Made by a program: the position numbers and the translations under genes
Assembly: GCA_004168015.1 (NCBI GenBank)
Contig: SEYW01000004.1
Location: 1 to 64,000 of the forward strand
Length of the DNA: 64,000 nt
Reading direction: 5' to 3'
DNA from: Methylolobus aquaticus
Lineage (GTDB): Bacteria > Pseudomonadota > Gammaproteobacteria > Methylococcales > Methylococcaceae
Notes under the pieces: generated by a model
What the model was told of the DNA's origin: nothing
Databases searched by the model: none
Seen by the model: the letters and a program-made list of their open reading frames with translations, nothing else
Shown: in pieces, positions 7,928 through 20,326 of the stretch
How the letters are laid out: each line of letters opens with the position of its first letter
How positions within the stretch are numbered: the first letter of the stretch is position 1

Positions 7928-8563
7928 TTATTCCGCCCAGGACGGCCGGAACGGCGCAGCCGGTCCCGACGCTGGGCTCGCCGTCGCGGCGGGTGCCGGC
8001 GACGCCGTGAAGCCAGCCGGGACCGCGGGCAGCCCACTGGCCGGCGCCCGGAAGCCACCCGCGCCCATCTGCGCGGCGTAGTCCTTATGGCCGGGCTGGA
8101 GCGCGGTGTGGATGACGTTCCGGTCCTCGCCCTTGGCGTCCCGCTCCACGTCGATGCGGGCCACGAACTCCAGGCCATCGAGGTCGGCGAAGCTCTGGAT
8201 ACAGCGTGCCGCCTGAGCGGTGGGCGACGCATCGTCGGGATGGACACCCCGCGCCGAGTTCAGCACGGCGCGCAAGAACGCTCGACCCATGTTGGCCCAC
8301 TCCGGGCCTTTTTCGCTGTGGAGCCCGATCAACGACCAGACCTTGCGGCGCGCAAAGGTCCCTTCGAGGACCACGAACTCGGCCGAGAGGTAGACCGAAC
8401 CGGTGGTGGTGTTGCGGGTGGCATACCCGCCGGTCCAGCCGAAGTGGGGGTTGTCGTACCCGCCGGGCTTCAGCGTCAGCCGCACCTTGGCCAGGGTCTT
8501 GGCCGGGATCAGATCAAACGAGGCTTGTTGTTCTGCATCATTGAAGTTTTGCCAGGCAGACAT
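7928..8563 (-). CDS. DUF669-like phage protein (putative ssDNA-binding)
   Basis: Starting at ATG 8563, the 211-residue product has a beta-rich domain (FDLIPAKTLAKVRLTLKPGG, TTTGSVYLSAEFVVLEG, NMGRAFLRAVLNSARG, LDGLEFVARIDVERDAKG) and a Pro/Ala-rich disordered tail. This resembles DUF669-family proteins, which in many phages sit next to a Sak4-type ATPase and a helicase and are suspected single-strand DNA-binding proteins. The same neighbours occur here. The match is by eye and the ssDNA-binding role is inferred. Confidence 0.55.
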   Translation of the reverse strand: MSAWQNFNDAEQQASFDLIPAKTLAKVRLTLKPGGYDNPHFGWTGGYATRNTTTGSVYLSAEFVVLEGTFARRKVWSLIGLHSEKGPEWANMGRAFLRAVLNSARGVHPDDASPTAQAARCIQSFADLDGLEFVARIDVERDAKGEDRNVIHTALQPGHKDYAAQMGAGGFRAPASGLPAVPAGFTASPAPAATASPASGPAAPFRPSWAE

Positions 8564-8564
8564 A

Positions 8565-9428
8565 TCAGTGCTCCGAAGACAGGGGGAGAGAAGCATCCGG
8601 GCGCGAGAAATCCAGGCGCTCGGGGGCGGGCTTGGCGGGACCGGCGATCTTGGCCATGAGGCGTCCCAGGTGCGGTTCCTCGACGAGGTCGAGCCGGCCG
8701 GAACGGTCCTTGGCGGGATAGCCCCAGGGATTGAGGGTCTGGCAGACGAAGGCGCGCTGAAGGCTGCCGTCCTCGGCCTTCAACTCGGCGAGGGTGATGA
8801 CCTCGTCGACGATGCCGGGCAGTTCGAGGCCGGTCTTGGAGCCGTCGATCTGCAGCGAGAACACTTTCCGGTTGTAGTCGTCGACCTTCTCGTCGAGGAT
8901 CCCGACCAGGAACACGTTCTTGCCGCGTGCGTGTTGGAGATGGGTGAGCGCGGTGATGAGTTCGCTGCCCAAAAGCCCGTAGGCGCCTCGGGCATCGGGT
9001 TTTCCGGTCTTCTCCGAGAAGGCCTGCGGCTGGCCCTTGCACCACTGGAAACAAAGCCGAGAAAGTACGGTGATCGAATCGACGAAGTAGGTCTCGTACT
9101 TGGCGAGCGCTGACGGGTCTCCGAACCGCTCGAGCACGTGTCCGTAGTGCGCTTCGCTGAAGGGTTGATCGTCCCTTAGGGCTGGATTCGGTCCGGCAAG
9201 AAATACGACGAAGTCGCGGAATTCCGTCCACGTGCGAGGCCGGACGGTGTCGCCGGACCATCCTTCCACAGCGAGATCGCCAGCCTCGAGGTCGACAAAC
9301 AGCGTGGATCGTTCATTCAGGCTCCAGAGCAGGGAGGTTTTCCCAATTCCGCTTTTTCCAAAGATGACGGCTTTGATGCCACGCTTTTCTGCAAGTCGTT
9401 CATCTGCTGTGATGATCTTAAATGCCAT
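8565..9428 (-). CDS. RecA/Sak4-like ATP-binding protein
   Basis: The 287-residue protein has a Walker A motif (VIFGKSGIGKTSLLW, residues 21-35), a strand with an acidic residue (LFVDLEAGDLAV) and a Walker B-like strand (YETYFVDSITVLSRLC). This matches phage AAA_24/Sak4 single-strand-annealing ATPases. ATG 9428 lies inside the 3' end of the HNH gene, and GGGAGG in that gene serves as Shine-Dalgarno. The first 40 or so codons are much more AT-rich (about 47% GC by hand count of 120 bases) than the rest of the gene. Its N-terminus, IITADERLAEKRG, is nearly repeated at the N-terminus of the HNH protein. Confidence 0.8.
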   Translation of the reverse strand: MAFKIITADERLAEKRGIKAVIFGKSGIGKTSLLWSLNERSTLFVDLEAGDLAVEGWSGDTVRPRTWTEFRDFVVFLAGPNPALRDDQPFSEAHYGHVLERFGDPSALAKYETYFVDSITVLSRLCFQWCKGQPQAFSEKTGKPDARGAYGLLGSELITALTHLQHARGKNVFLVGILDEKVDDYNRKVFSLQIDGSKTGLELPGIVDEVITLAELKAEDGSLQRAFVCQTLNPWGYPAKDRSGRLDLVEEPHLGRLMAKIAGPAKPAPERLDFSRPDASLPLSSEH

Positions 9429-9999
9429 GATTAACCTCCCGGACATGCTTCCAGGTACGTTTCCGTACGATGGCGCTGATGGTGGAATGGCTCGCCACGC
9501 CGTAGGCGCGAGCGAGTTCCCAGAGGGAAGCGTCTCCGTTGCGGTAGCGGGTTCGGATTTCACGCACGGTGTCATCGTCGAGCTTGGCGTTGACGTTGCG
9601 CGTCCCTAGGGCGCTCCGTTGCTTGCAGACCATGTCGCGCATGTTGTCTGCAGGGGTGCCGACGAAGAGATGAGCGGGATTCACGCATCCACGGTTATCG
9701 CAGTGGTGACAGACCACCGCCCCGGGTGGAATGGCGCCATGGACTAACTCGTAAGCGAACCGGTGCGCGGCCACCATCGGCCTGCGGTAGCCCAGGCGGA
9801 ATCCACCGTAGCCGTTCGAAGAGCAACCGCCACGCCAGATCCAGCAGCCGTGACTGTCTGAATCTCGATCGACTTTGCGCCAGAAGCGTTGTTCGGTAGA
9901 TCGCGATTGCTTGGCTACGCCTTGGTCCGCCAGGACGCCCTTGACGCCCCGCGGCTCGGCGAGGCGCTGGTCGGCGGTGATGATGGGGAAGCCGCTCAT
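9418..9999 (-). CDS. HNH homing endonuclease fused to a truncated ATPase N-terminus
   Basis: The 193-residue product has three parts. Residues 1-24 (MSGFPIITADQRLAEPRGVK...) copy the ATPase N-terminus. Residues 40-120 are an HNH_3 nuclease, with the motif around CHHCDNRGCVNPAH (H98, H99, N107, H110). The C-terminal DNA-binding region (NVNAKLDDDTVREIRTRY, YGVASHSTISAIVRKRTWKHV) is of the type found in homing endonucleases. Its ATG is the original first codon of the ATPase gene and overlaps the upstream stop. It looks like a mobile endonuclease that inserted in frame after about codon 23 of the ATPase gene, whose 5' end was then restored downstream. Confidence 0.8.
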   Translation of the reverse strand: MSGFPIITADQRLAEPRGVKGVLADQGVAKQSRSTEQRFWRKVDRDSDSHGCWIWRGGCSSNGYGGFRLGYRRPMVAAHRFAYELVHGAIPPGAVVCHHCDNRGCVNPAHLFVGTPADNMRDMVCKQRSALGTRNVNAKLDDDTVREIRTRYRNGDASLWELARAYGVASHSTISAIVRKRTWKHVREVNHGI

Positions 10000-10475
10000 T
10001 GCTCACCCCCATCCAGCAATGCCAGCCGGAAGCCGGGCTTGCCGGTTTTCAGGGTGCGCGCGGGGGCAAACACCCGGCGGAGTGATTCCGGCCAGGCGTT
10101 GAACTTCGTCTCGCTGACCCGGTAGGTCACCTCGACGAACTCAGCCGGGTCGTCACCGTTGGCCTGGATGCGCTGGACGATCTCGGCCAGACGCGGCTGG
10201 TCCCATTCGACTTTCTTCGGCAGGTCGGCCGAGATGCGCACGGCCCCGTCATCGAAGTGGACGACGCCAGTGTCCTTGCCCTGAGAGAGGCGCAGCGCTT
10301 TGGCCGTCTCAGCGTATTTCCGGTCCAAGGCCTGCTCGAGCTGGTCGGCCAGTGCCTTGGCAGCCGCCAGTCGCTCCGTCGCCGCTTGGCGGAGTTCGAA
10401 CAGCGTCTCGGGGGACAAGGCGGCGATGTCGCCGACGCCCAGTGTGGGGAGGGTGTCCAGGGTGACGGGGTTCAT
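9996..10475 (-). CDS. phage hypothetical protein (159 aa)
   Basis: The product (MNPVTLDTLPTLGVGDIAAL) has a long central helix likely to form a coiled coil (LRQAATERLAAAKALADQLEQAL). A conserved-looking C-terminal domain follows (VHFDDGAVRISADLPKKVEW, FVEVTYRVSETKFNAWPESL). I recognise no named family. It is coupled by ATGA overlaps to the HTH gene upstream and to the original ATPase start downstream, so it was probably the ATPase gene's direct neighbour before the HNH insertion. Confidence 0.55.
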   Translation of the reverse strand: MNPVTLDTLPTLGVGDIAALSPETLFELRQAATERLAAAKALADQLEQALDRKYAETAKALRLSQGKDTGVVHFDDGAVRISADLPKKVEWDQPRLAEIVQRIQANGDDPAEFVEVTYRVSETKFNAWPESLRRVFAPARTLKTGKPGFRLALLDGGEQ

Positions 10476-10684
10476 GCCGCACCTCCGGTGTGGACCGCGT
10501 GACCCGGGCTGCGGCGCAGGTGCCGCGCCTCATAGGCCTCGATGTCTTCCTGCCGGTACAGCACCCGGCCGTGCAGTTTGAGATAGACCGGGCCGATGCC
10601 CTCAGACCGCCAACGCTCCAGCGAAGCTTCGCTGAGGCCCCAGCGGTCAGCCAGTTGCCGTTGATTGAGATGTTTCACGCTCAC
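10472..10684 (-). CDS. AlpA/excisionase-like HTH protein (70 aa)
   Basis: A short protein with an N-terminal helix-turn-helix (LNQRQLADRWGLSEASLERW) and a beta-wing plus helix (GPVYLKLHGRVLYRQEDIEAYEA). This is the standard architecture of AlpA/Xis-type regulators of prophages. It is the first gene of the minus-strand replication operon, so it is a good candidate for the regulator or excision factor of the element. The upstream noncoding interval holds a long palindrome and TGATAT boxes. Confidence 0.7.
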   Translation of the reverse strand: MSVKHLNQRQLADRWGLSEASLERWRSEGIGPVYLKLHGRVLYRQEDIEAYEARHLRRSPGHAVHTGGAA

Positions 10685-13237: not shown

Positions 13238-13903
13238 TTACGCCAGGGGTGTCAGCAACTCGGGATAGTCATTCCGAGCCTGGTTCACTGCCGGCGTCAC
13301 CGCCCAGCCGCGCAGTTGGTCGGCGTCGAAGGGCTGCAGCAGCCCGCGGATCGTATCGAGCGGCGCCGCGGGATCGAGCCAGGTCCGGTACGCACTGTCC
13401 GGCAGGATCAGCGGCATGCGGTCGTGCACGGTGGACACCAGTTCGTTCGCCGGCCCGACCAGGATGGTGCAGGAGCGGAGCGTGAAGCCATCGGGGGCGT
13501 GCCAGGTATCCCACAGCCCAGCCAACGCGAGGCCTTCATCCCCGGCACTGGTGAAATAGTGCGGAAGTTTCTTGCCATCTTCCGTTCTCCACTCGAGCCA
13601 CCCTGAGGCCGGGATCAGGCAGCGCCGAGATTTGAACGGCGCCCGGAACACCGGCTTGGTCTCGACCGTTTCGAGCCGCGCGTTGAAGGTACTGTAGGGC
13701 AGCTTGGACTCCTTGGCCCAGAACGGCACCAGGCCCCAGCGGCAATCTTCCATCACGTAGTCGCCGTCCTCGGACTGGCGGATCGCAGCAATCATCTGGG
13801 TCGGCGCGATGTTGTAATGCGGCGTGCGTTCGGGAAATTCCGTCGCGAGGACCTGCTCGATCCGCTCGAAGCGGGTTTGCGCCACTGCAAAGCGTCCACA
13901 CAT
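13238..13903 (-). CDS. SRAP-domain protein (HMCES/YedK family)
   Basis: Translation from ATG 13903 exposes Cys2, which must be the mature N-terminal residue in this family (MCGRFAVAQ); this decides the start. Other hallmarks are HYNIAPTQ near residues 29-36, RWGLVPFWAK, the NARLETVETKPVFR stretch, CLIPASGWLEWR with the catalytic Glu, and STVHDRMPLIL with the active-site His. Length (221) matches YedK. SRAP proteins crosslink to abasic sites in single-stranded DNA and protect replicating DNA. In this element it could protect replication or recombination intermediates. A GGAAGA-A-TCTTCC palindrome lies just upstream at 13917-13929. Confidence 0.9.
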   Translation of the reverse strand: MCGRFAVAQTRFERIEQVLATEFPERTPHYNIAPTQMIAAIRQSEDGDYVMEDCRWGLVPFWAKESKLPYSTFNARLETVETKPVFRAPFKSRRCLIPASGWLEWRTEDGKKLPHYFTSAGDEGLALAGLWDTWHAPDGFTLRSCTILVGPANELVSTVHDRMPLILPDSAYRTWLDPAAPLDTIRGLLQPFDADQLRGWAVTPAVNQARNDYPELLTPLA

Positions 13904-14081
13904 GGCTCGGTGCTCCGGAAGAATCTTCCTGCACTTTGCCGGGGCGCGTTGATTTGAACAAGTGCGACGACCGGAGTGCCCAAGGCCGAGAAAAAATTCG
14001 CCCGCTTTTCGCAATCACCCGCAGACGCCCCTAAACGCTTGAAATTCCGGGATGGTCGAGCACGAGTTCGGTCGTCACAAT

Positions 14082-14117: not shown

Positions 14118-14312
14118 ATGACGCCCAAGTTCCTCACCCCACCCGATCAACTCACCCCCGCCGCACGCGCCGCTGAAGTCACCGCCATCCTGGCGCGCTG
14201 CATTCTGCGCCAGCACGCCGAAGCGCCCAACAGAGAACGCCAAGTTGACCTTGGCTTCTGCCCGGGAAGAAGGGTTCATACAACTCCTTCTCAACCGGAG
14301 CCGTTGTCATGA
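14118..14312 (+). CDS. small conserved protein upstream of the DUF2924/recombinase pair
   Basis: A 64-residue product (MTPKFLTPPDQLTPAARAAE) has a helical core (AEVTAILARCILRQHAE) and a C-terminal motif (VDLGFCPGRRVHTTPS). Small proteins with this helix and an LxFxPxxxVH ending commonly precede DUF2924 and serine recombinase genes in proteobacterial mobile elements; I recall the pattern rather than a family name. Its stop overlaps the DUF2924 ATG (ATGA), which supports it as a real coupled gene. Function unknown. Confidence 0.6.
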   Translation: MTPKFLTPPDQLTPAARAAEVTAILARCILRQHAEAPNRERQVDLGFCPGRRVHTTPSQPEPLS

Positions 14313-14767
14313 ACGCACCCTCGAACCCAACCGTCGCCGCCCAGGTGGCGGGCCTGCCGTCCCTGCCCATGAAAGAACTCTGGGCGCTGTGGGACCGCTA
14401 CTTTCCGCGCCGGCCCAACAAGACCAATCGCGCTTACCTCGAGGCGCGGATCGCCTACAAACTCCAAGAGGAGGCCTACGGCGGGCTGTCGGCGGCGACG
14501 AAGGAACGCTTGATCGCCATCGGCCGCAAGCACTCCAAGATCAAATCCGGTCCGACCCGCAGCGAGTTCCACTTCGCGCCTGGGACGACGCTCATCCGCG
14601 AATGGGGCGATCGGGATCACCAGGTCACCGTGACCGCCGAAGGGCGGTTCGAGTACGCGGGCCAGACCTACAAGAGCCTGTCGGCGGTGGCGCGGCAGAT
14701 CACCGGGGCGCATTGGTCGGGGCCGTTATTTTTCGGCCTCCGCAAGGCCGTGGAGACAACCCGATGA
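14309..14767 (+). CDS. DUF2924 protein
   Basis: The 152-residue product contains the DUF2924 signature: LPSLPMKELWALWDRYFPRRP, then YLEARIAYKLQEEAYGGLS and a C-terminal beta domain FHFAPGTTLIREWGD...VTVTAEGRFEYAGQTYKSLS...ARQITGAHWSGPLFFGL. Proteins of this family nearly always sit directly before a large serine recombinase, as here (ATGA overlap), and probably assist or direct recombination. The molecular role is not established. It is intact in length. Confidence 0.85.
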   Translation: MNAPSNPTVAAQVAGLPSLPMKELWALWDRYFPRRPNKTNRAYLEARIAYKLQEEAYGGLSAATKERLIAIGRKHSKIKSGPTRSEFHFAPGTTLIREWGDRDHQVTVTAEGRFEYAGQTYKSLSAVARQITGAHWSGPLFFGLRKAVETTR

Positions 14768-16140
14768 ACGCCGCCGTCCTGCCCCACACGGGCGTGGCGC
14801 GGAAGCGTTGCGCCGTCTACACCCGGAAATCCACCGACGAAGGTCTGGATCAGGCCTTCAACTCCATCGATGCCCAGCGCGAAGCGGGACAGGCCTACAT
14901 CGCCAGCCAGCGCGCCGAGGGCTGGATTCCGGTTACGGAAGACTACGATGACCCGGCCTATTCTGGCGGGAACATGGAGCGCCCGGCCTTGAAGCGCCTG
15001 TTGGCCGACATCGAGCGCGGCCAGATCGACATCGTCGTGGTGTACAAGCTGGATCGGCTGTCACGCAGTCTCGCCGACTTCGCGCGGATGGTCGAGATCT
15101 TCGACCGTCACGGGGTGAGTTTCAGTGCGGTGACGCAGCAGCTCAACTCCGCGACGTCGATGGGCCGGCTGATGCTGAACGTGCTGTTGAGCTTCGCCCA
15201 GTTCGAGCGGGAGGTTACCGGCGAGCGCATCCGCGACAAGATCGCCGCCAGTAAGCGCAAGGGATTATGGATGGGGGGCGTACCGCCGCTGGGCTACGAC
15301 GTCGTCAACCGGCAGTTGGTCATCAACCAAGCGGAAGCCGCGATCGTGCGATGCGTGTTCGAGGACATGCTGACCCTCGGGTCGACGACCCGGATCGCGG
15401 CGGCCCTGAACGCCGAGGGCAAGACCACCAAGGCCTGGACCACCCAGGAGGGCCGGCGGCGAGAAGGGACGCGGTTCGACAAGAAGTATCTCTACAAGCT
15501 GCTGCGCAACCGGATCTATCTCGGCGAGCTATCTCACCGTGGCACGTGGTTTCCCGGCCAGCACGATTCTATCGTCGATGCGAAGACGTGGGCGGCAGTG
15601 CACGCGGTGCTGGCGGTCGCGTCGCAGAAACGGGCGGCGGCCACCCAAGCGCAGGGGCGTACCGATGCCCTGCTCCGGGGACTGCTGTTCGACGCCACCG
15701 GTGGGAAGATGCACCCGACCTTCACGCGGAAGCCGGGGAGGGCATACCGGTATTACATCAGCAAGGCGGAGAAACGCTTCGGGGCGGCCGCCCGGACCTG
15801 CGAGCGCATCCCGGCTGACGCGGTAGAAACGGCGACAGTGGCGCAGATCAAAACCGTGCTGAGCAGTCCCGAAGCCATCGCCGCGGTGTGCCGGGAGCTT
15901 GAGGGACGATCCGTTTCCGAGGACGTGGCCGTGCTGGCCCTGACCCGCCTTGGCGACACCTGGGACCAGTTGTTCCCGGTCGAGCAGCACCGGCTGGTGA
16001 ACCTGATGATCGAACGGATTCACCTGGTCGAGGGCGGACTCAAGATCACCTGGCGGGCACTGGGTTGGAAGGCACTGCTGGGCGAGTTCGCCCCCAACAC
16101 CATCGGCGCCGAGCAGGTCGCCTGGGAGGCGGTGGCATGA
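14764..16140 (+). CDS. large serine recombinase (integrase of the element)
   Basis: The 458-residue protein has the serine-recombinase catalytic domain: VYTRKSTDEG with nucleophile Ser23, FNSIDAQREA, DYDDPAYSGGNMERPAL, VVVYKLDRLSRSLADFARM and the LSFAQFEREVTGERIRDK helix. A Recombinase (PF07508-type) domain follows (GGVPPLGYDV, YLYKLLRNRIYLGE). The usual cysteine zinc ribbon is replaced by LLFDATGGKMHPTFTRK with no cysteines, as in other DUF2924-linked recombinases. It presumably integrates and excises the element by att x att recombination. Attachment sites could not be identified because only one element end is visible. Confidence 0.9.
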   Translation: MNAAVLPHTGVARKRCAVYTRKSTDEGLDQAFNSIDAQREAGQAYIASQRAEGWIPVTEDYDDPAYSGGNMERPALKRLLADIERGQIDIVVVYKLDRLSRSLADFARMVEIFDRHGVSFSAVTQQLNSATSMGRLMLNVLLSFAQFEREVTGERIRDKIAASKRKGLWMGGVPPLGYDVVNRQLVINQAEAAIVRCVFEDMLTLGSTTRIAAALNAEGKTTKAWTTQEGRRREGTRFDKKYLYKLLRNRIYLGELSHRGTWFPGQHDSIVDAKTWAAVHAVLAVASQKRAAATQAQGRTDALLRGLLFDATGGKMHPTFTRKPGRAYRYYISKAEKRFGAAARTCERIPADAVETATVAQIKTVLSSPEAIAAVCRELEGRSVSEDVAVLALTRLGDTWDQLFPVEQHRLVNLMIERIHLVEGGLKITWRALGWKALLGEFAPNTIGAEQVAWEAVA

Positions 16141-17035: not shown

Positions 17036-17071
17036 TTGACGCCGAACCAATAGGAGTGCGTAATAATTACG
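17036..17071 (+). promoter_or_regulatory. chromate operon promoter with operator-like palindrome
   Basis: TTGACG at 17036-17041 is a good -35 element. A TAATAA/TAATAAT -10-like sequence starts at 17061 (19-base spacer), or CGTAAT at 17059 (17-base spacer). A 13-bp palindrome, CGTAAT-A-ATTACG, at 17059-17071 overlaps the -10, where a repressor would block polymerase. ChrB regulators are known to control chr promoters, so this is the likely ChrB site. The chrB ATG follows 27 bases later. Confidence 0.55.
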
Positions 17072-17097
17072 ACAGACCTGTAATACTCGCACACAAA

Positions 17098-18048
17098 ATG
17101 ACTCCTGCGTGGGCAATGCTAATCCTGAGCCTGCCGACCCAACATGCCACAGCACGCATGCGGATCTGGCGGGCACTGAAAGCGCTCGGCTGCGGTGTCT
17201 TGCGCGACGGCGTGTATCTCTTGCCGAACTCAGCGCAGCTCCGGCAGACACTCGAGGCCCAGGCGGGAGAAATCAATGCCAGCGGCGGAAGCGCGTACGT
17301 GCTGGCCCTGAACGCCCTTGATCAGGAACAGCAGGAGACGTTCGAACGATTGTTCGACCGCTCGGAGGACTATGCGCGGCTACTCGAGGTTACACAGCAG
17401 CTCAGCCGGGAGTTGAAAGCGGAGGATGTCGCCCCACTGCAGCGGCGTATTGCACGCCTGCGCAAGGACTTCGATCAACTCGCGGCGCTGGATTTCTTTC
17501 CGGGCGAGGCCCGGCAGCAGACGGCGCTGGCCTTGAACGAGTTCGAACAGGCGCTGCTGTCGCGGGCCTGTCCCGACGAGCCCCATGCCGTCGAGCGGTC
17601 GATCCCACGGCTGCGCCGCGAGGATCATCAGGCGCGTACCTGGGCCACGCGGCAACGGCCGTGGATCGATCGCCTCGCCAGCGCGTGGTTAATCCGGCGT
17701 TTCATCGACCCCACTGCACGTTTTCTGTGGCTGACGCAACCCGACGAATGTCCACCGGACGCACTGGGCTTCGACTTCGACGGCGCAGTCTTCACCCATG
17801 TCGGCGGCAAGGTCACCTTCGAAGTGCTGCTGACCAGCTTCGGCTTGGCGGGTGAACCGGCGCTTGAGCACTTAGGCAGACTGGTGCACGTTCTCGACGT
17901 CGGTGGTATCCCGGTGGTGGAAGCACCGGGGCTCGCGGCACTGATCCGCGGGATGCAGCAGCGGTTCGAGGACGACGATCAGTTACTCAAGGAAGCGGAA
18001 AAGGTCTTCGATTCGTTCTATTCGGCTTTCTCAGGAAATGACGCATGA
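17098..18048 (+). CDS. chrB: chromate resistance regulator ChrB
   Basis: I start at ATG 17098 (MTPAWAMLILSLPTQHATAR) because an upstream GTG at 17056 would lie on the predicted -10. The 316-residue protein has an N-terminal winged-helix region (MRIWRALKALGCGVLRDGVYLLPN), a helical linker, and the C-terminal ChrB domain (RPWIDRLASAWLIRRFIDP, CPPDALGFDFDGAVFTHVGGKVTFEVLL). ChrB is the chromate-responsive regulator of chr operons. It is followed directly by chrA (ATGA overlap). A shorter protein with only the C-terminal domain is encoded at the end of the operon. Confidence 0.85.
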   Translation: MTPAWAMLILSLPTQHATARMRIWRALKALGCGVLRDGVYLLPNSAQLRQTLEAQAGEINASGGSAYVLALNALDQEQQETFERLFDRSEDYARLLEVTQQLSRELKAEDVAPLQRRIARLRKDFDQLAALDFFPGEARQQTALALNEFEQALLSRACPDEPHAVERSIPRLRREDHQARTWATRQRPWIDRLASAWLIRRFIDPTARFLWLTQPDECPPDALGFDFDGAVFTHVGGKVTFEVLLTSFGLAGEPALEHLGRLVHVLDVGGIPVVEAPGLAALIRGMQQRFEDDDQLLKEAEKVFDSFYSAFSGNDA

Positions 18049-19430
18049 AACAAACCGACTCCTCGCAAGCGGCTCCGCTTCCCGTATCCCGCGGCCAAGC
18101 CTTCTGGTATTGGCTCAAACTCGGCTTCATCAGCTTTGGCGGTCCGGCCGGACAGATCGCCATCATGCACCAGGACCTGGTCGAGAAACGGCGCTGGATT
18201 TCCGAGAACCGCTACCTGCACGCATTGAACTACTGCATGCTGCTGCCGGGACCCGAGGCCCAGCAACTCGCGACGTATATCGGCTGGCTGATGCACCGAG
18301 GCTGGGGAGCGGTGATGGCGGGCAGCCTGTTCGTGTTGCCGTCGGTGTTGATCCTGATCGGCCTGGGCTGGATTTATCTGGCGCTCGGTCATCTGCCCGC
18401 AGTGGCCGGCGTGCTCTACGGTATCAAGCCAGCGGTCACCGCCATCGTGCTGTTCGCGGCCTACCGGATCGGGTCGCGCGCCCTGAAGAACTGGGTGCTG
18501 TGGACGATTGCCGTACTGGCTTTCGTGGCCATTTTCGTGCTGGATGCGCCGTTTCCGTTGATTGTCCTCGCCGCGGCATTACTCGGTGCCGTGGGCGGAA
18601 AAGTCGCGCCGAAGAAATTCGCGCTGGGTGGTGGTCATGGTGCCGCGAAGGCCAGTTATGGCCCGGCGCTGATCGACGACAATACGCCGACGCCCGCGCA
18701 TGCCCGCTTCACCTGGTGGCGCCTGACCCGGGTGGTCACGATCGGCCTGGCGCTATGGGGCGGAGCGATCGGGTTCCTTTGCGCCCGCTACGGTTGGCAC
18801 GGTGCCTTGACTCAGATGGGCTGGTTTTTCACCAAGGCGGCACTGCTGACCTTCGGCGGGGCTTATGCAGTGCTGCCTTATGTCTATCAGGGCGCCGTCG
18901 AGCACTATCACTGGCTGACGCCAACGCAGATGATCGACGGGCTGGCGCTCGGCGAAACGACGCCCGGACCGCTGATCATGGTCGTGACCTTCGTCGGTTT
19001 CGTCGCCGGCTGGACCCAGCAGGTGTTCGGTTCTGATCAGGTCTTCCTCGGCGGCGTGGTGGCCGCGCTGGTCGTGACTTATTTCACATTCCTCCCCAGC
19101 TTCCTGTTCATCTTGGCGGGTGGTCCGCTGGTCGAGTCTACGCACGGTGACCTCAAGTACACCGCGCCGTTGACGGCGATCACCGCGGCTGTGGTTGGGG
19201 TGATCCTGAATCTGGCGGTGTTTTTCGCCTATCACACACTCTGGCCGTCCGGGTTCGGTGGACGCTTCGACGGTGTTTCCGCGCTGATCGGCCTCGCCGC
19301 GTTACTGGCGCTGTTCCGCTGCAAGGTGGGCGTCATCCCGGTCATCGGCGCCGCTGGCGTGGCGGGATTGCTGTTGACCTTGCTCAAACCCTGGCTGCTG
19401 GCTCAACTCGGAGGTCTGCTATGTTCATGA
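18045..19430 (+). CDS. chrA: chromate efflux transporter ChrA
   Basis: The 461-residue membrane protein contains two CHR domains, the long-chain form of the family. The first half has KLGFISFGGPAGQIAIMHQ, LVEKRRWISENRYLHALN and LLPGPEAQQLATYIG. The second half repeats the pattern: FTKAALLTFGGAYAVLPYV, HWLTPTQMIDGLALGETTPG. About ten to twelve hydrophobic segments are visible. ChrA exports chromate from the cytoplasm using the proton-motive force. It overlaps chrB at its start and the DUF1259 gene by 10 bases at its end, indicating one transcript. Confidence 0.92.
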   Translation: MKQTDSSQAAPLPVSRGQAFWYWLKLGFISFGGPAGQIAIMHQDLVEKRRWISENRYLHALNYCMLLPGPEAQQLATYIGWLMHRGWGAVMAGSLFVLPSVLILIGLGWIYLALGHLPAVAGVLYGIKPAVTAIVLFAAYRIGSRALKNWVLWTIAVLAFVAIFVLDAPFPLIVLAAALLGAVGGKVAPKKFALGGGHGAAKASYGPALIDDNTPTPAHARFTWWRLTRVVTIGLALWGGAIGFLCARYGWHGALTQMGWFFTKAALLTFGGAYAVLPYVYQGAVEHYHWLTPTQMIDGLALGETTPGPLIMVVTFVGFVAGWTQQVFGSDQVFLGGVVAALVVTYFTFLPSFLFILAGGPLVESTHGDLKYTAPLTAITAAVVGVILNLAVFFAYHTLWPSGFGGRFDGVSALIGLAALLALFRCKVGVIPVIGAAGVAGLLLTLLKPWLLAQLGGLLCS

Positions 19431-20326
19431 TGCGTTATGTTCGGCTTTCCCTGCTGACATTCGGTGCTCTACTCCATGGGCAGGCTGCCGCTGCAGCGGC
19501 ACCAGGCCAGCCGCTTTCGCTGGATACCGCCAAGATCGAACGCTTGACCGGTGTGAAGGGCAAGCTCGACCCCGCCGAGAACGCCTTCAAGGTCAGCGTG
19601 CCGCGTGCCGATCTCAACGTGACCGTGGCCGGGGTCCACATGATCCCGCCGATGGGGCTGACCTCCTGGGCCGCCTTCGCGAAGTCCGGTTCGGCAACCC
19701 AGGTCACGGGCGATCTGGTGCTGCTGGAAGATCAGGTCAGCCCGGTGCTGGACGCGGTGCTGGCGGGCGGGCTGGAGGTTACGGCCCTCCACAACCATTT
19801 CCTGTGGGACACGCCCCGCGTCATGTTTATGCACATCGCCGGCCAGGGCAATGAAGATAAGCTCGCGGCGGCCGTGGGCGGCGCATTCGCCGAAATCGGG
19901 GAAACCGCGGGCGCCAAGGGCCAGAGCCCGAAGATGCCCATCGACCCCAAGCAATCCACGCTCGATCCCGCCCCGATCGAGGCGATCCTCGGCGTCAAGG
20001 GCGAACTGGCCGGTGGTGTCTACAAGATCGGCATCGGCCGCTCCACCACCCTAAGCGGTCATGCACTCGGGAACACGATGGGCGTCAATACCTGGGCCTC
20101 CTTCGCCGGCTCCAACGAACGTGCGGTCGTGGACGGCGATTTCGTCATGTACGAAGCGGAACTGCAGCCGGTGCTGAGGGCGCTGCGCGGAGCGGGCATT
20201 CACGTGGTGGCGATCCATCAGCACATGGTGGGCGAATCGCCGAGAATGATGTTTCTGCATTACTGGGGTGTGGGGCGGACCGGCGACCTGGCACGGGGAC
20301 TCAAGTCGGCGCTGGCAATGCAATAG
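19421..20326 (+). CDS. DUF1259 (LppY/LpqO family) secreted protein
   Basis: The 301-residue product has a signal peptide (MFMMRYVRLSLLTFGALLHG, AAAAA) and two tandem DUF1259 repeats. Repeat 1 has LTSWAAFAKSG, VTGDLVLLEDQVSPVL and LEVTALHNHFLWDTPRVMFMH. Repeat 2 has NTWASFAGS, VDGDFVMYEAELQPVL and IHVVAIHQHMVGESPRMMFLH. The repeated His-x-His motifs suggest a metal site. Such proteins occur next to chrA in several chromate operons. Role unknown; a periplasmic sensor or metal-handling accessory is possible. Confidence 0.8.
   Translation: MFMMRYVRLSLLTFGALLHGQAAAAAAPGQPLSLDTAKIERLTGVKGKLDPAENAFKVSVPRADLNVTVAGVHMIPPMGLTSWAAFAKSGSATQVTGDLVLLEDQVSPVLDAVLAGGLEVTALHNHFLWDTPRVMFMHIAGQGNEDKLAAAVGGAFAEIGETAGAKGQSPKMPIDPKQSTLDPAPIEAILGVKGELAGGVYKIGIGRSTTLSGHALGNTMGVNTWASFAGSNERAVVDGDFVMYEAELQPVLRALRGAGIHVVAIHQHMVGESPRMMFLHYWGVGRTGDLARGLKSALAMQ

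What the first reader, a model, noticed from the sequence alone, without database searches (positions are those of the whole stretch)
9418..9999. HNH endonuclease inserted into the 5' end of the ATPase gene, with the ATPase N-terminus restored from a divergent donor
The HNH protein begins with IITADQRLAEPRG, nearly the same as the ATPase N-terminus IITADERLAEKRG just downstream. Yet the DNA of the two copies differs strongly, and the downstream copy (about the first 40 codons) is visibly AT-rich compared with the rest of the ATPase gene. This looks like in-frame insertion of a mobile endonuclease after codon 23, with the lost 5' end supplied by a lower-GC homolog (a co-conversion tract). The HNH 3' end also carries the Shine-Dalgarno for the restored ATPase gene, so the invader has taken over its translation start. 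The arrangement is neither intron nor intein.
Basis: partly seen in the sequence, partly recalled or inferred. Interest (0 to 1): 0.7.

Follow-up and report, generated by a model that had tools for sequence, protein, structure and literature searches.

The report
Homing nuclease captured recombinase gene's start
In a cluster of phage-type genes, a DNA-cutting enzyme's gene begins with the first 24 codons of a DNA-recombination gene, which follows it as a complete hybrid of two divergent versions; the enzyme likely cut and copied itself into the gene, bringing a relative's front part to replace the one it broke, a bacterial counterpart of hybrid genes known from fungal mitochondria.

Summary
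HNH codons 1-24 match, residue for residue, the N-terminus of P0002, an ATPase of the same Sak4-like (AAA_24) family. The ATPase downstream is a hybrid: residues 1-174 are 71% identical to P0002, residues 175-272 are 99%. Trees of the two parts conflict (p-AU 8.7e-6). Blind segmentation of third-position GC finds one low-GC block whose left edge is HNH codon 26. So one imported block (about 1.0 kb, window ~8907-9927) likely carries the HNH core plus the 5' ~174 ATPase codons. A second, 89% identical protein (P0121) has the same fusion and tail. Free-standing HNHs with their own starts lie between the upstream gene and this ATPase gene in 5 other distinct loci, of several ATPase lineages with HNH-free relatives: the inferred donor arrangement. 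Most likely mechanism: one-sided homing, with a cut near the Walker-A codons, homologous repair on the right and illegitimate joining on the left. Cleavage is untested. Against uniqueness: Paracoccus marinus has a duplicated ATPase 5' end without any HNH, HNH-free mosaics occur in the family, and no close donor was found. New variant of a known kind (fungal mitochondrial endonuclease hybrid genes; T-even free-standing homing endonucleases).

The parts
9418..9999 (-). HNH endonuclease ORF (193 aa)
   Evidence: PF13392 HNH_3 E 7.8e-14; PHROG endonuclease families; 16 columns invariant across 24 aligned sequences, window included; best fold match I-HmuI 1u3e, E 0.041
9928..9999 (-). HNH codons 1-24 = captured 5' end of the resident ATPase gene, including its start codon (4-nt ATGA overlap with the upstream gene)
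   Evidence: 24/24 residues identical to the N-terminus of the ATPase P0002; GC3 24/24; the same start overlap in HNH-free relatives L221 and L083; low confidence in the structure model, pLDDT 50-59 for residues 1-30
9919..9927 (-). left junction, HNH codons 25-27, where P0002 has the first Walker-A codons (GKS)
   Evidence: P0002 reads GVLAGKSGLGKTS, HNH GVLADQGVAKQS, P0121 GVLAGQGVAKQS; blind GC3 breakpoint at HNH codon 26
9442..9918 (-). HNH core, codons 28-186; several free-standing relatives start at or near the position of V28
   Evidence: alignment A1; 14 of 22 relatives end within two residues of the W-[K/R]-H-[V/I/L]-type motif that closes this core, 6 have tails of 4-16 residues; GC3 of HNH codons 25-191 0.70 against 0.83-0.87 in the upstream gene, ATPase 3' part and downstream gene
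9418..9441 (-). HNH tail REVNHGI plus stop, read through the ATPase SD and start region
   Evidence: identical in P0121; a tail of this length is not unusual by itself (6 of 22 relatives have tails of 4-16 residues)
9435..9440 (-). Shine-Dalgarno-like GGGAGG for the ATPase, 6 nt before its ATG
   Evidence: sequence; similar context ggaggactaatcATGGCTTTT in HNH-free L088 and L219
8565..9428 (-). ATPase gene, AAA_24 / Sak4-like ssDNA annealing protein family, intact Walker A GKSGIGKTS
   Evidence: PF13479 E 1.2e-42; phrog_124 E 1.9e-41
8907..9428 (-). imported ATPase part, codons 1-174 (divergent donor)
   Evidence: 50/174 mismatches to P0002 against 1/98 after the breakpoint, LLR 21.3, 0 of 5000 permutations; tree conflict p-AU 8.7e-6
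8565..8906 (-). resident ATPase 3' part, codons 175-287 and stop
   Evidence: 97 of 98 residues identical to P0002 over 175-272; C-part clade with P0002 100/98
8907..9927 (-). inferred single imported block (HNH core + 5' ATPase)
   Evidence: GC3 0.686 inside against 0.849 outside, Fisher 2.5e-8; HNH core and ATPase N-part alike (0.701, 0.672, p 0.64)
9996..10475 (-). upstream gene, phrog_2480 family, neighbour of the ATPase in relatives
   Evidence: phrog_2480 E 4.6e-33; directly upstream of the ATPase in 34 of 99 HNH-free loci with enough upstream DNA; of the 65 others 40 were printed, 34 of these with it 280-339 nt away
7928..8563 (-). downstream gene, phrog_2300 family
   Evidence: E 4.2e-44; adjacent to the ATPase in 97 of 99 loci

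Best explanation
An HNH gene that begins with the first 24 codons of a Sak4-like ATPase gene is followed by a complete but hybrid copy of that ATPase gene, and the likely cause is one-sided homing: an HNH that sat just 5' of a divergent ATPase gene would have cut the resident gene near its Walker-A codons and been copied in together with the donor's 5' ATPase half. Shown by sequence: the captured start, the hybrid ATPase with its breakpoint near codon 174, and the low-GC block that covers the HNH core and the ATPase front. Inferred: the right side was repaired by homology inside the ATPase gene (breakpoint ~codon 174), while the left side lacked usable homology and was joined illegitimately at the cut. 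The HNH would thereby have lost its own start codon (position of V28, now GTA) and taken the resident ATPase start, which overlaps the end of the upstream gene. The donor ATPase would have arrived with its own SD and ATG, so the gene stayed whole. Predicted: the 24-codon leader is a disordered passenger on a working nuclease.
For: HNH codons 1-24 identical to P0002's N-terminus. ATPase mosaic: changepoint after residue 174, 50/174 then 1/98 mismatches, 0 of 5000 permutations; window+P0002 clade rejected for residues 1-172 (p-AU 8.7e-6) and supported 100/98 for 173-272. Blind GC3 segmentation starts at HNH codon 26 (LLR 18.1, 0 of 300 permutations); HNH core and ATPase N-part have the same GC3, both below the flanks. 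154 HNH-free ATPase genes show no 5' GC3 drop; none reaches the window's N-to-C difference. P0121, 89% identical over the whole HNH, shares fusion, junction and tail. Donor-type arrangement seen directly: phrog_2480 gene, free-standing HNH with its own start, ATPase in 5 distinct loci: Eleftheria terrae L330, L343, L421, L422/L423 and L424/L425. HNH-free relatives with the phrog_2480 gene directly before the ATPase: L332 (of L330), L339 (of L343), L083 and L221 (of L421 and L422). L421 also has an AT-rich ATPase 5' end (reached by 4 of 154 HNH-free genes). One-sided homing with illegitimate junctions is on record for phage T4 (PMC2988022, passage).
Against: No donor closer than 79% to the N-part was found. 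The window N-part is not in the ATPase clade of L330 and L343 (held together: p-AU 0.014; L330 ranks 191 of 191 by identity over residues 1-174, although 11 rare residues are shared in the N-part and none in the C-part). The window HNH is only 39-42% identical to the HNHs of L330 and L343. L330 and L343 show no clear AT-rich ATPase 5' end (13 and 55 of 154 HNH-free genes exceed them). Between L421 and L422 the HNH (84%) is no more alike than the upstream gene (85%), which suggests descent rather than recent homing there. HNH-free mosaics occur in the family (50 pairs among 191 proteins) and L221 has a duplicated 5' end without an HNH, so recombination here does not require an HNH. GC3 puts the right edge at codon 126, homology at 174. 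The DNA around P0002 and P0121 could not be read, so P0002's locus is not known to be HNH-free. Cleavage was not tested.
Confidence: 0.66

Rival explanations
1. Two steps: the HNH first inserted alone at codon 24/25 of the resident gene and broke it; later recombination with a divergent allele placed a complete 5' end behind the HNH.
For: The HNH's left border lies close to where free-standing relatives start; mosaics in the family are not rare.
Against: Needs a second crossover exactly at the HNH's 3' end; HNH core and ATPase N-part share one low GC3; HNHs flush against the ATPase start already exist in 5 other distinct loci.
Confidence: 0.15
2. Ordinary illegitimate recombination between two related elements, one of which carried an HNH 5' of its ATPase; the nuclease did not make the cut.
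For: L221 (Paracoccus marinus) has a 176-bp tandem, 89% identical copy of the upstream-gene end and ATPase 5' end without any HNH, joined bluntly with no microhomology; HNH-free mosaics exist.
Against: The left junction falls both near the HNH gene's own 5' border and in the Walker-A codons, a coincidence under random joining; HNHs recur in the same gap in several ATPase lineages.
Confidence: 0.12
3. Duplication first: an L221-like event made a redundant 5' copy, and the HNH later inserted harmlessly into that spare copy.
For: L221 shows such an HNH-free duplicated state; HNH-bearing L421 and L422 are close ATPase relatives of L221.
Against: No trace of an upstream-gene end between HNH and ATPase start, which L221 has; one shared GC3 block; L221 is of another ATPase lineage.
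Confidence: 0.05
4. Assembly artefact joining two strains.
For: The mosaic itself is seen in one contig only (P0001 cluster: 2 members, 1 contig).
Against: P0121, 11% different, has the same fusion and the same tail.
Confidence: 0.02

Closest known systems
Mitochondrial endonuclease-ORF (mORF) hybrid genes: atp6 of Allomyces macrogynus; atp6, atp9, cox2, nad3 of Glomus sp. (PMC3630166, passages)
   Same: A mobile endonuclease ORF arrives with a foreign gene terminus, the resident terminus is displaced but still recognisable, and the gene becomes a hybrid
   Different: There the C-terminus is replaced in mitochondria (LAGLIDADG, GIY-YIG for atp9); here the N-terminal ~174 codons in a bacterial phage-type gene cluster, by an HNH that keeps the resident start as its own
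Free-standing HNH homing endonucleases of T-even phages (mobA, mobE) and split genes (PMC2988022, passages and section 17)
   Same: HNH next to or inside a DNA-metabolism gene, co-conversion of flanking DNA, overlap with the upstream ORF
   Different: The mobE and mobA insertions into coding genes leave the host gene split in two; here the gene is whole again
HNH_3 endonucleases between the phrog_2480 gene and Sak4-like ATPases (L330, L343, L421, L422, L424), found here
   Same: Same gap, same Pfam family, 3' end overlapping the ATPase start
   Different: They have their own start and no ATPase leader; those of L330 and L343 are 39-42% identical to the window HNH
One-sided (illegitimate) double-strand-break repair during T4 intron homing (PMC2988022, passage)
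   Same: Homology on one side only, illegitimate joining on the other
   Different: An intron in experiments, not a natural free-standing HNH

Membership tests
HNH_3 (His-Me finger) homing endonuclease, free-standing type | HNH_3 domain above the curated cut-off, with the columns conserved in relatives | tested here: met
   PF13392 51.5 bits against cut-off 24.8; 16 columns invariant across 24 aligned sequences including the window; their catalytic role is recalled, not tested
HNH_3 (His-Me finger) homing endonuclease, free-standing type | fold like I-HmuI, with a C-terminal helical DNA-binding part | tested here: inconclusive
   best PDB match 1u3e I-HmuI, prob 1.00 but E 0.041 and TM 0.34; HTH-type PHROG match over residues 131-180
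HNH_3 (His-Me finger) homing endonuclease, free-standing type | HNH-free alleles exist at the same site | tested here: met
   106 HNH-free ATPase loci; upstream gene directly before the ATPase in 34 of the 99 with enough upstream DNA
HNH_3 (His-Me finger) homing endonuclease, free-standing type | cuts the HNH-free allele and spreads to it | not testable with these tools
   needs cleavage and cross assays
Intron-encoded endonuclease / group I intron | intron RNA around the ORF | tested here: not met
   no Rfam match up to E 1 in 8400-10600
Intein | one ORF with host parts on both sides of the nuclease | tested here: not met
   HNH has its own stop; ATPase has its own start
Fungal mORF hybrid-gene element (works like) | endonuclease ORF plus foreign gene terminus, resident terminus displaced | tested here: met
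   at the 5' instead of the 3' end
Fungal mORF hybrid-gene element (membership) | 3'-terminal replacement in mitochondrial DNA by LAGLIDADG or GIY-YIG enzymes | tested here: not met
   bacterial genome, HNH_3, 5' end

The most novel reading that the evidence does not exclude
A guild of HNH homing endonucleases specialises on the 5' end of phage Sak4-type recombinase genes, and by one-sided homing it repeatedly swaps the N-terminal half of the recombinase, the very enzyme family expected to help repair the cut; capture of the target's start codon then locks the nuclease to the target's expression.
Probability: 0.3. Interest if true: 0.78.

Novelty: new variant of a known kind. Interest (0 to 1): 0.6.

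Why it matters
It is a readable snapshot of how a selfish nuclease can enter the coding part of a gene without destroying it: the nuclease takes the old start and brings a replacement front for the gene. The same logic was known for 3' gene ends in fungal mitochondria; a 5' version in bacterial phage-type DNA would explain some mosaic recombinase genes and gives a concrete, testable cleavage site. The 5 free-standing HNHs in the same gap, with HNH-free relatives, give natural occupied and empty sites to compare.

Tried and rejected
HNH query in viral contigs: no relative. The 62-aa fusion query in genome contigs: 17 loci, no further fusion; only six peptide patterns were scanned. Survey for captured N-termini: 76 of 86 HNH loci testable (80 viral, 5 phage, window): window z 14.4, next L315 3.7 (match 1458 nt away), L270 3.6, L236 3.0. 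L270 was rejected after reading its sequence: the 'leader' is an out-of-frame reading of the upstream gene; L315 and L236 were not examined further. Second set: 73 of 91 testable (partly duplicate contigs), best z 2.9. I considered the donor to be of the Eleftheria-type ATPase clade; the tree does not support it (p-AU 0.014). In the larger tree the window N-part no longer groups specifically with the P0023 clade as. Intron and intein rejected (ORFs). Plain 5' codon bias rejected (154 controls). A GATC microhomology that I first read into the L221 junction is not there; the join is blunt. L471 (ATPase-like hit E 1.5e-5, about 520 nt from its HNH) was not counted as an HNH-ATPase pair; L358 has an HNH downstream, not in the gap, and was not counted.

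Counting notes: one search set 106 ATPase loci after dropping window copies, duplicate places and L225/L226 (HNH-only matches); its printed list of loci without a direct upstream neighbour was cut at 40 of 65. One search used 154 distinct HNH-free genes after dropping identical sequences, short ones, L221, L343 and L358. The 5 distinct HNH-ATPase pairs are L330, L343 (=L412), L421, L422 (=L423, 100% over the compared parts) and L424 (=L425, 99.8-100%). L333-L338 and L340-L342 are HNH-free but have the phrog_2480 gene about 1.0 kb or more upstream, so they are not exact empty sites. The ATPase of L422/L423 has one in-frame stop in its N-terminal part; it was described only.

Full report
What is there. 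On the minus strand the order is a phrog_2480 gene (9996-10475), an HNH_3 endonuclease (9418-9999), a Sak4-like AAA_24 ATPase (8565-9428) and a phrog_2300 gene (7928-8563). Sak4 proteins are phage RecA-like single-strand annealing recombinases (PMC5928155 and PMC5499656, search listing only). The host is an unnamed draft genome of 42 contigs in which a search at E <= 1 finds only this copy of either gene, plus their mutual N-terminal match.

The captured start. HNH residues 1-24 are identical to the first 24 residues of P0002, a 286-aa ATPase; P0002's own DNA could not be read. Several free-standing HNH relatives start at or near the position aligned with V28 of the window protein, so the window protein has an ATPase leader. 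Of 22 relatives, 14 end within two residues of the closing W-motif and 6 carry tails of 4-16 residues, so the 7-residue tail REVNHGI is not unusual in length; it is notable because it reads through the ATPase's SD and start. The structure model is confident over most of the HNH core and weak over residues 1-30 (block means 50-59). All 24 leader codons end in G or C, against 0.70 for the rest of the HNH.

The hybrid ATPase. Against P0002 the window ATPase has 50 mismatches in residues 1-174 and 1 in 175-272 (LLR 21.3; 0 of 5000 permutations reach it). In trees of 38 proteins chosen from the hits, residues 173-272 place it with P0002 at 100/98, while residues 1-172 reject that pair at p-AU 8.7e-6. 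The nearest listed protein over the N-part is only 79% identical, so the donor lineage is unsampled. Mosaics as such are not unique: 50 of 18145 pairs among 191 homologs have one side at 97% or more and the other at 78% or less, many of them through P0274, P0083 and P0097.

One block. Third-position GC along the four genes, segmented without reference to homology, gives a low block from HNH codon 26 to ATPase codon 126 (0 of 300 permutations). The homology-defined block (HNH codon 25 to ATPase codon 174) has 234/341 against 434/511 outside (Fisher 2.5e-8), and its two halves do not differ (0.701 and 0.672, p 0.64). Among 154 HNH-free ATPase genes there is no 5' drop; none reaches the window's N-to-C difference and 1 of 154 reaches the codon 1-45 difference.

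Recurrence. P0121 (2 member sequences, 2 contigs) is 89% identical over the full HNH and shares leader, junction and tail, so the fusion is real and has persisted; its flanking DNA was out of reach. In one search, 110 loci encode an ATPase match and only the 4 window copies also hold an HNH; in the curated set of 106 other loci none has an HNH. A plasmid search then revealed Eleftheria terrae NZ_CP106953.1, where a free-standing HNH with its own start lies between the phrog_2480 and ATPase genes. L343 has the same order. A search with the Eleftheria HNH added L421, L422/L423 and L424/L425, again with a phrog_2480-like gene before and the ATPase directly after the HNH: 5 distinct loci in all. 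HNH-free relatives with the phrog_2480 gene directly before the ATPase are L332 for L330, L339 for L343, and L083 and L221 for L421 and L422. In the 5 loci the HNH's own terminal codons (TGGAGG or TGGAGA) stand 5-7 nt before the ATPase ATG, so an HNH 3' end that can double as ribosome-binding site looks like a shared habit. In the window the SD lies a few codons later and resembles the native start context of L088 and L219. L421 has an AT-rich ATPase 5' end (reached by 4 of 154 HNH-free genes); L330 and L343 do not stand out (13 and 55 of 154). L421 and L422 HNHs are no more alike than their upstream genes (84% and 85%), so that pair may share the HNH by descent.

Mechanism. The simplest reading is homing from a donor with the HNH flush against its ATPase: a cut near the Walker-A codons of the resident gene, homologous resolution on the right inside the ATPase gene, illegitimate joining on the left near the HNH's border. 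For T4, one-sided homing with microhomology junctions, co-conversion, and HNH insertion into coding genes are reviewed in PMC2988022 (passages; section 17). The fungal analogue, with displaced resident C-termini and foreign ones brought by endonuclease ORFs, is in PMC3630166 (passages); PMC4019555 offers a different explanation for such duplicated ends (passages). That nuclease genes occupy boundaries of exchange between phages is the title claim of PMC10448857 (passages), and PMC13096335 reports segmental amplification driven by the phage homing endonuclease SegB (passages). Searches for a 5' case in phages or prophages showed none among the listed titles and abstract openings; most listed papers were not opened, one search listed 12 of 45 papers, and the library is limited to open-licence papers.

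Against this reading. L221 (Paracoccus marinus) has a tandem 176-bp copy (157 of 176 identical) of the upstream-gene end and the first ~49 ATPase codons with no HNH, joined bluntly, so 5' duplications arise without an HNH. The window N-part is not in the Eleftheria-type clade (p-AU 0.014), although it shares 11 residues with L330 that are rare in the other homologs, all in the N-part. GC3 and homology disagree on the right border (126 against 174). Cleavage is untested.

Verdict. Observation confirmed and extended; interpretation partly supported; new variant of a known kind.

Noticed in passing
L221:4427-4640 (Paracoccus marinus, contig NZ_VJYZ01000009.1): Tandem 176-bp duplication (157 of 176 identical) of the upstream-gene end plus the first ~49 ATPase codons without any HNH; blunt junction.
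   Followed up: partly
L330:2935-3447, L343:2014-2523, L421:1400-1918, L422:2501-3019, L424:562-1059: A lineage of free-standing HNHs between phrog_2480-like genes and Sak4-like ATPases of several lineages; the HNH's terminal codons form an SD-like TGGAGG/TGGAGA 5-7 nt before the ATPase start.
   Followed up: partly
L422 and L423, about 3195: The ATPase gene behind the HNH has one in-frame stop in its N-terminal part; whether it still works is unknown.
   Followed up: no
P0274, P0083, P0097 (metagenome proteins): Strong mosaics within the same ATPase family with breakpoints near residue 210; their longest contigs are about 1.1 kb, so they could be assembly chimeras.
   Followed up: no
window 14245-16140 (+): Large serine recombinase (Resolvase and Recombinase domains) beside the phage-type genes, next to an SRAP-domain protein at 13238-14014 (-).
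   Followed up: no
window 17056-20326 (+): ChrB-like protein, chromate transporter and DUF1259 protein a short way beyond the serine recombinase: a likely metal-resistance cassette beside the element.
   Followed up: no
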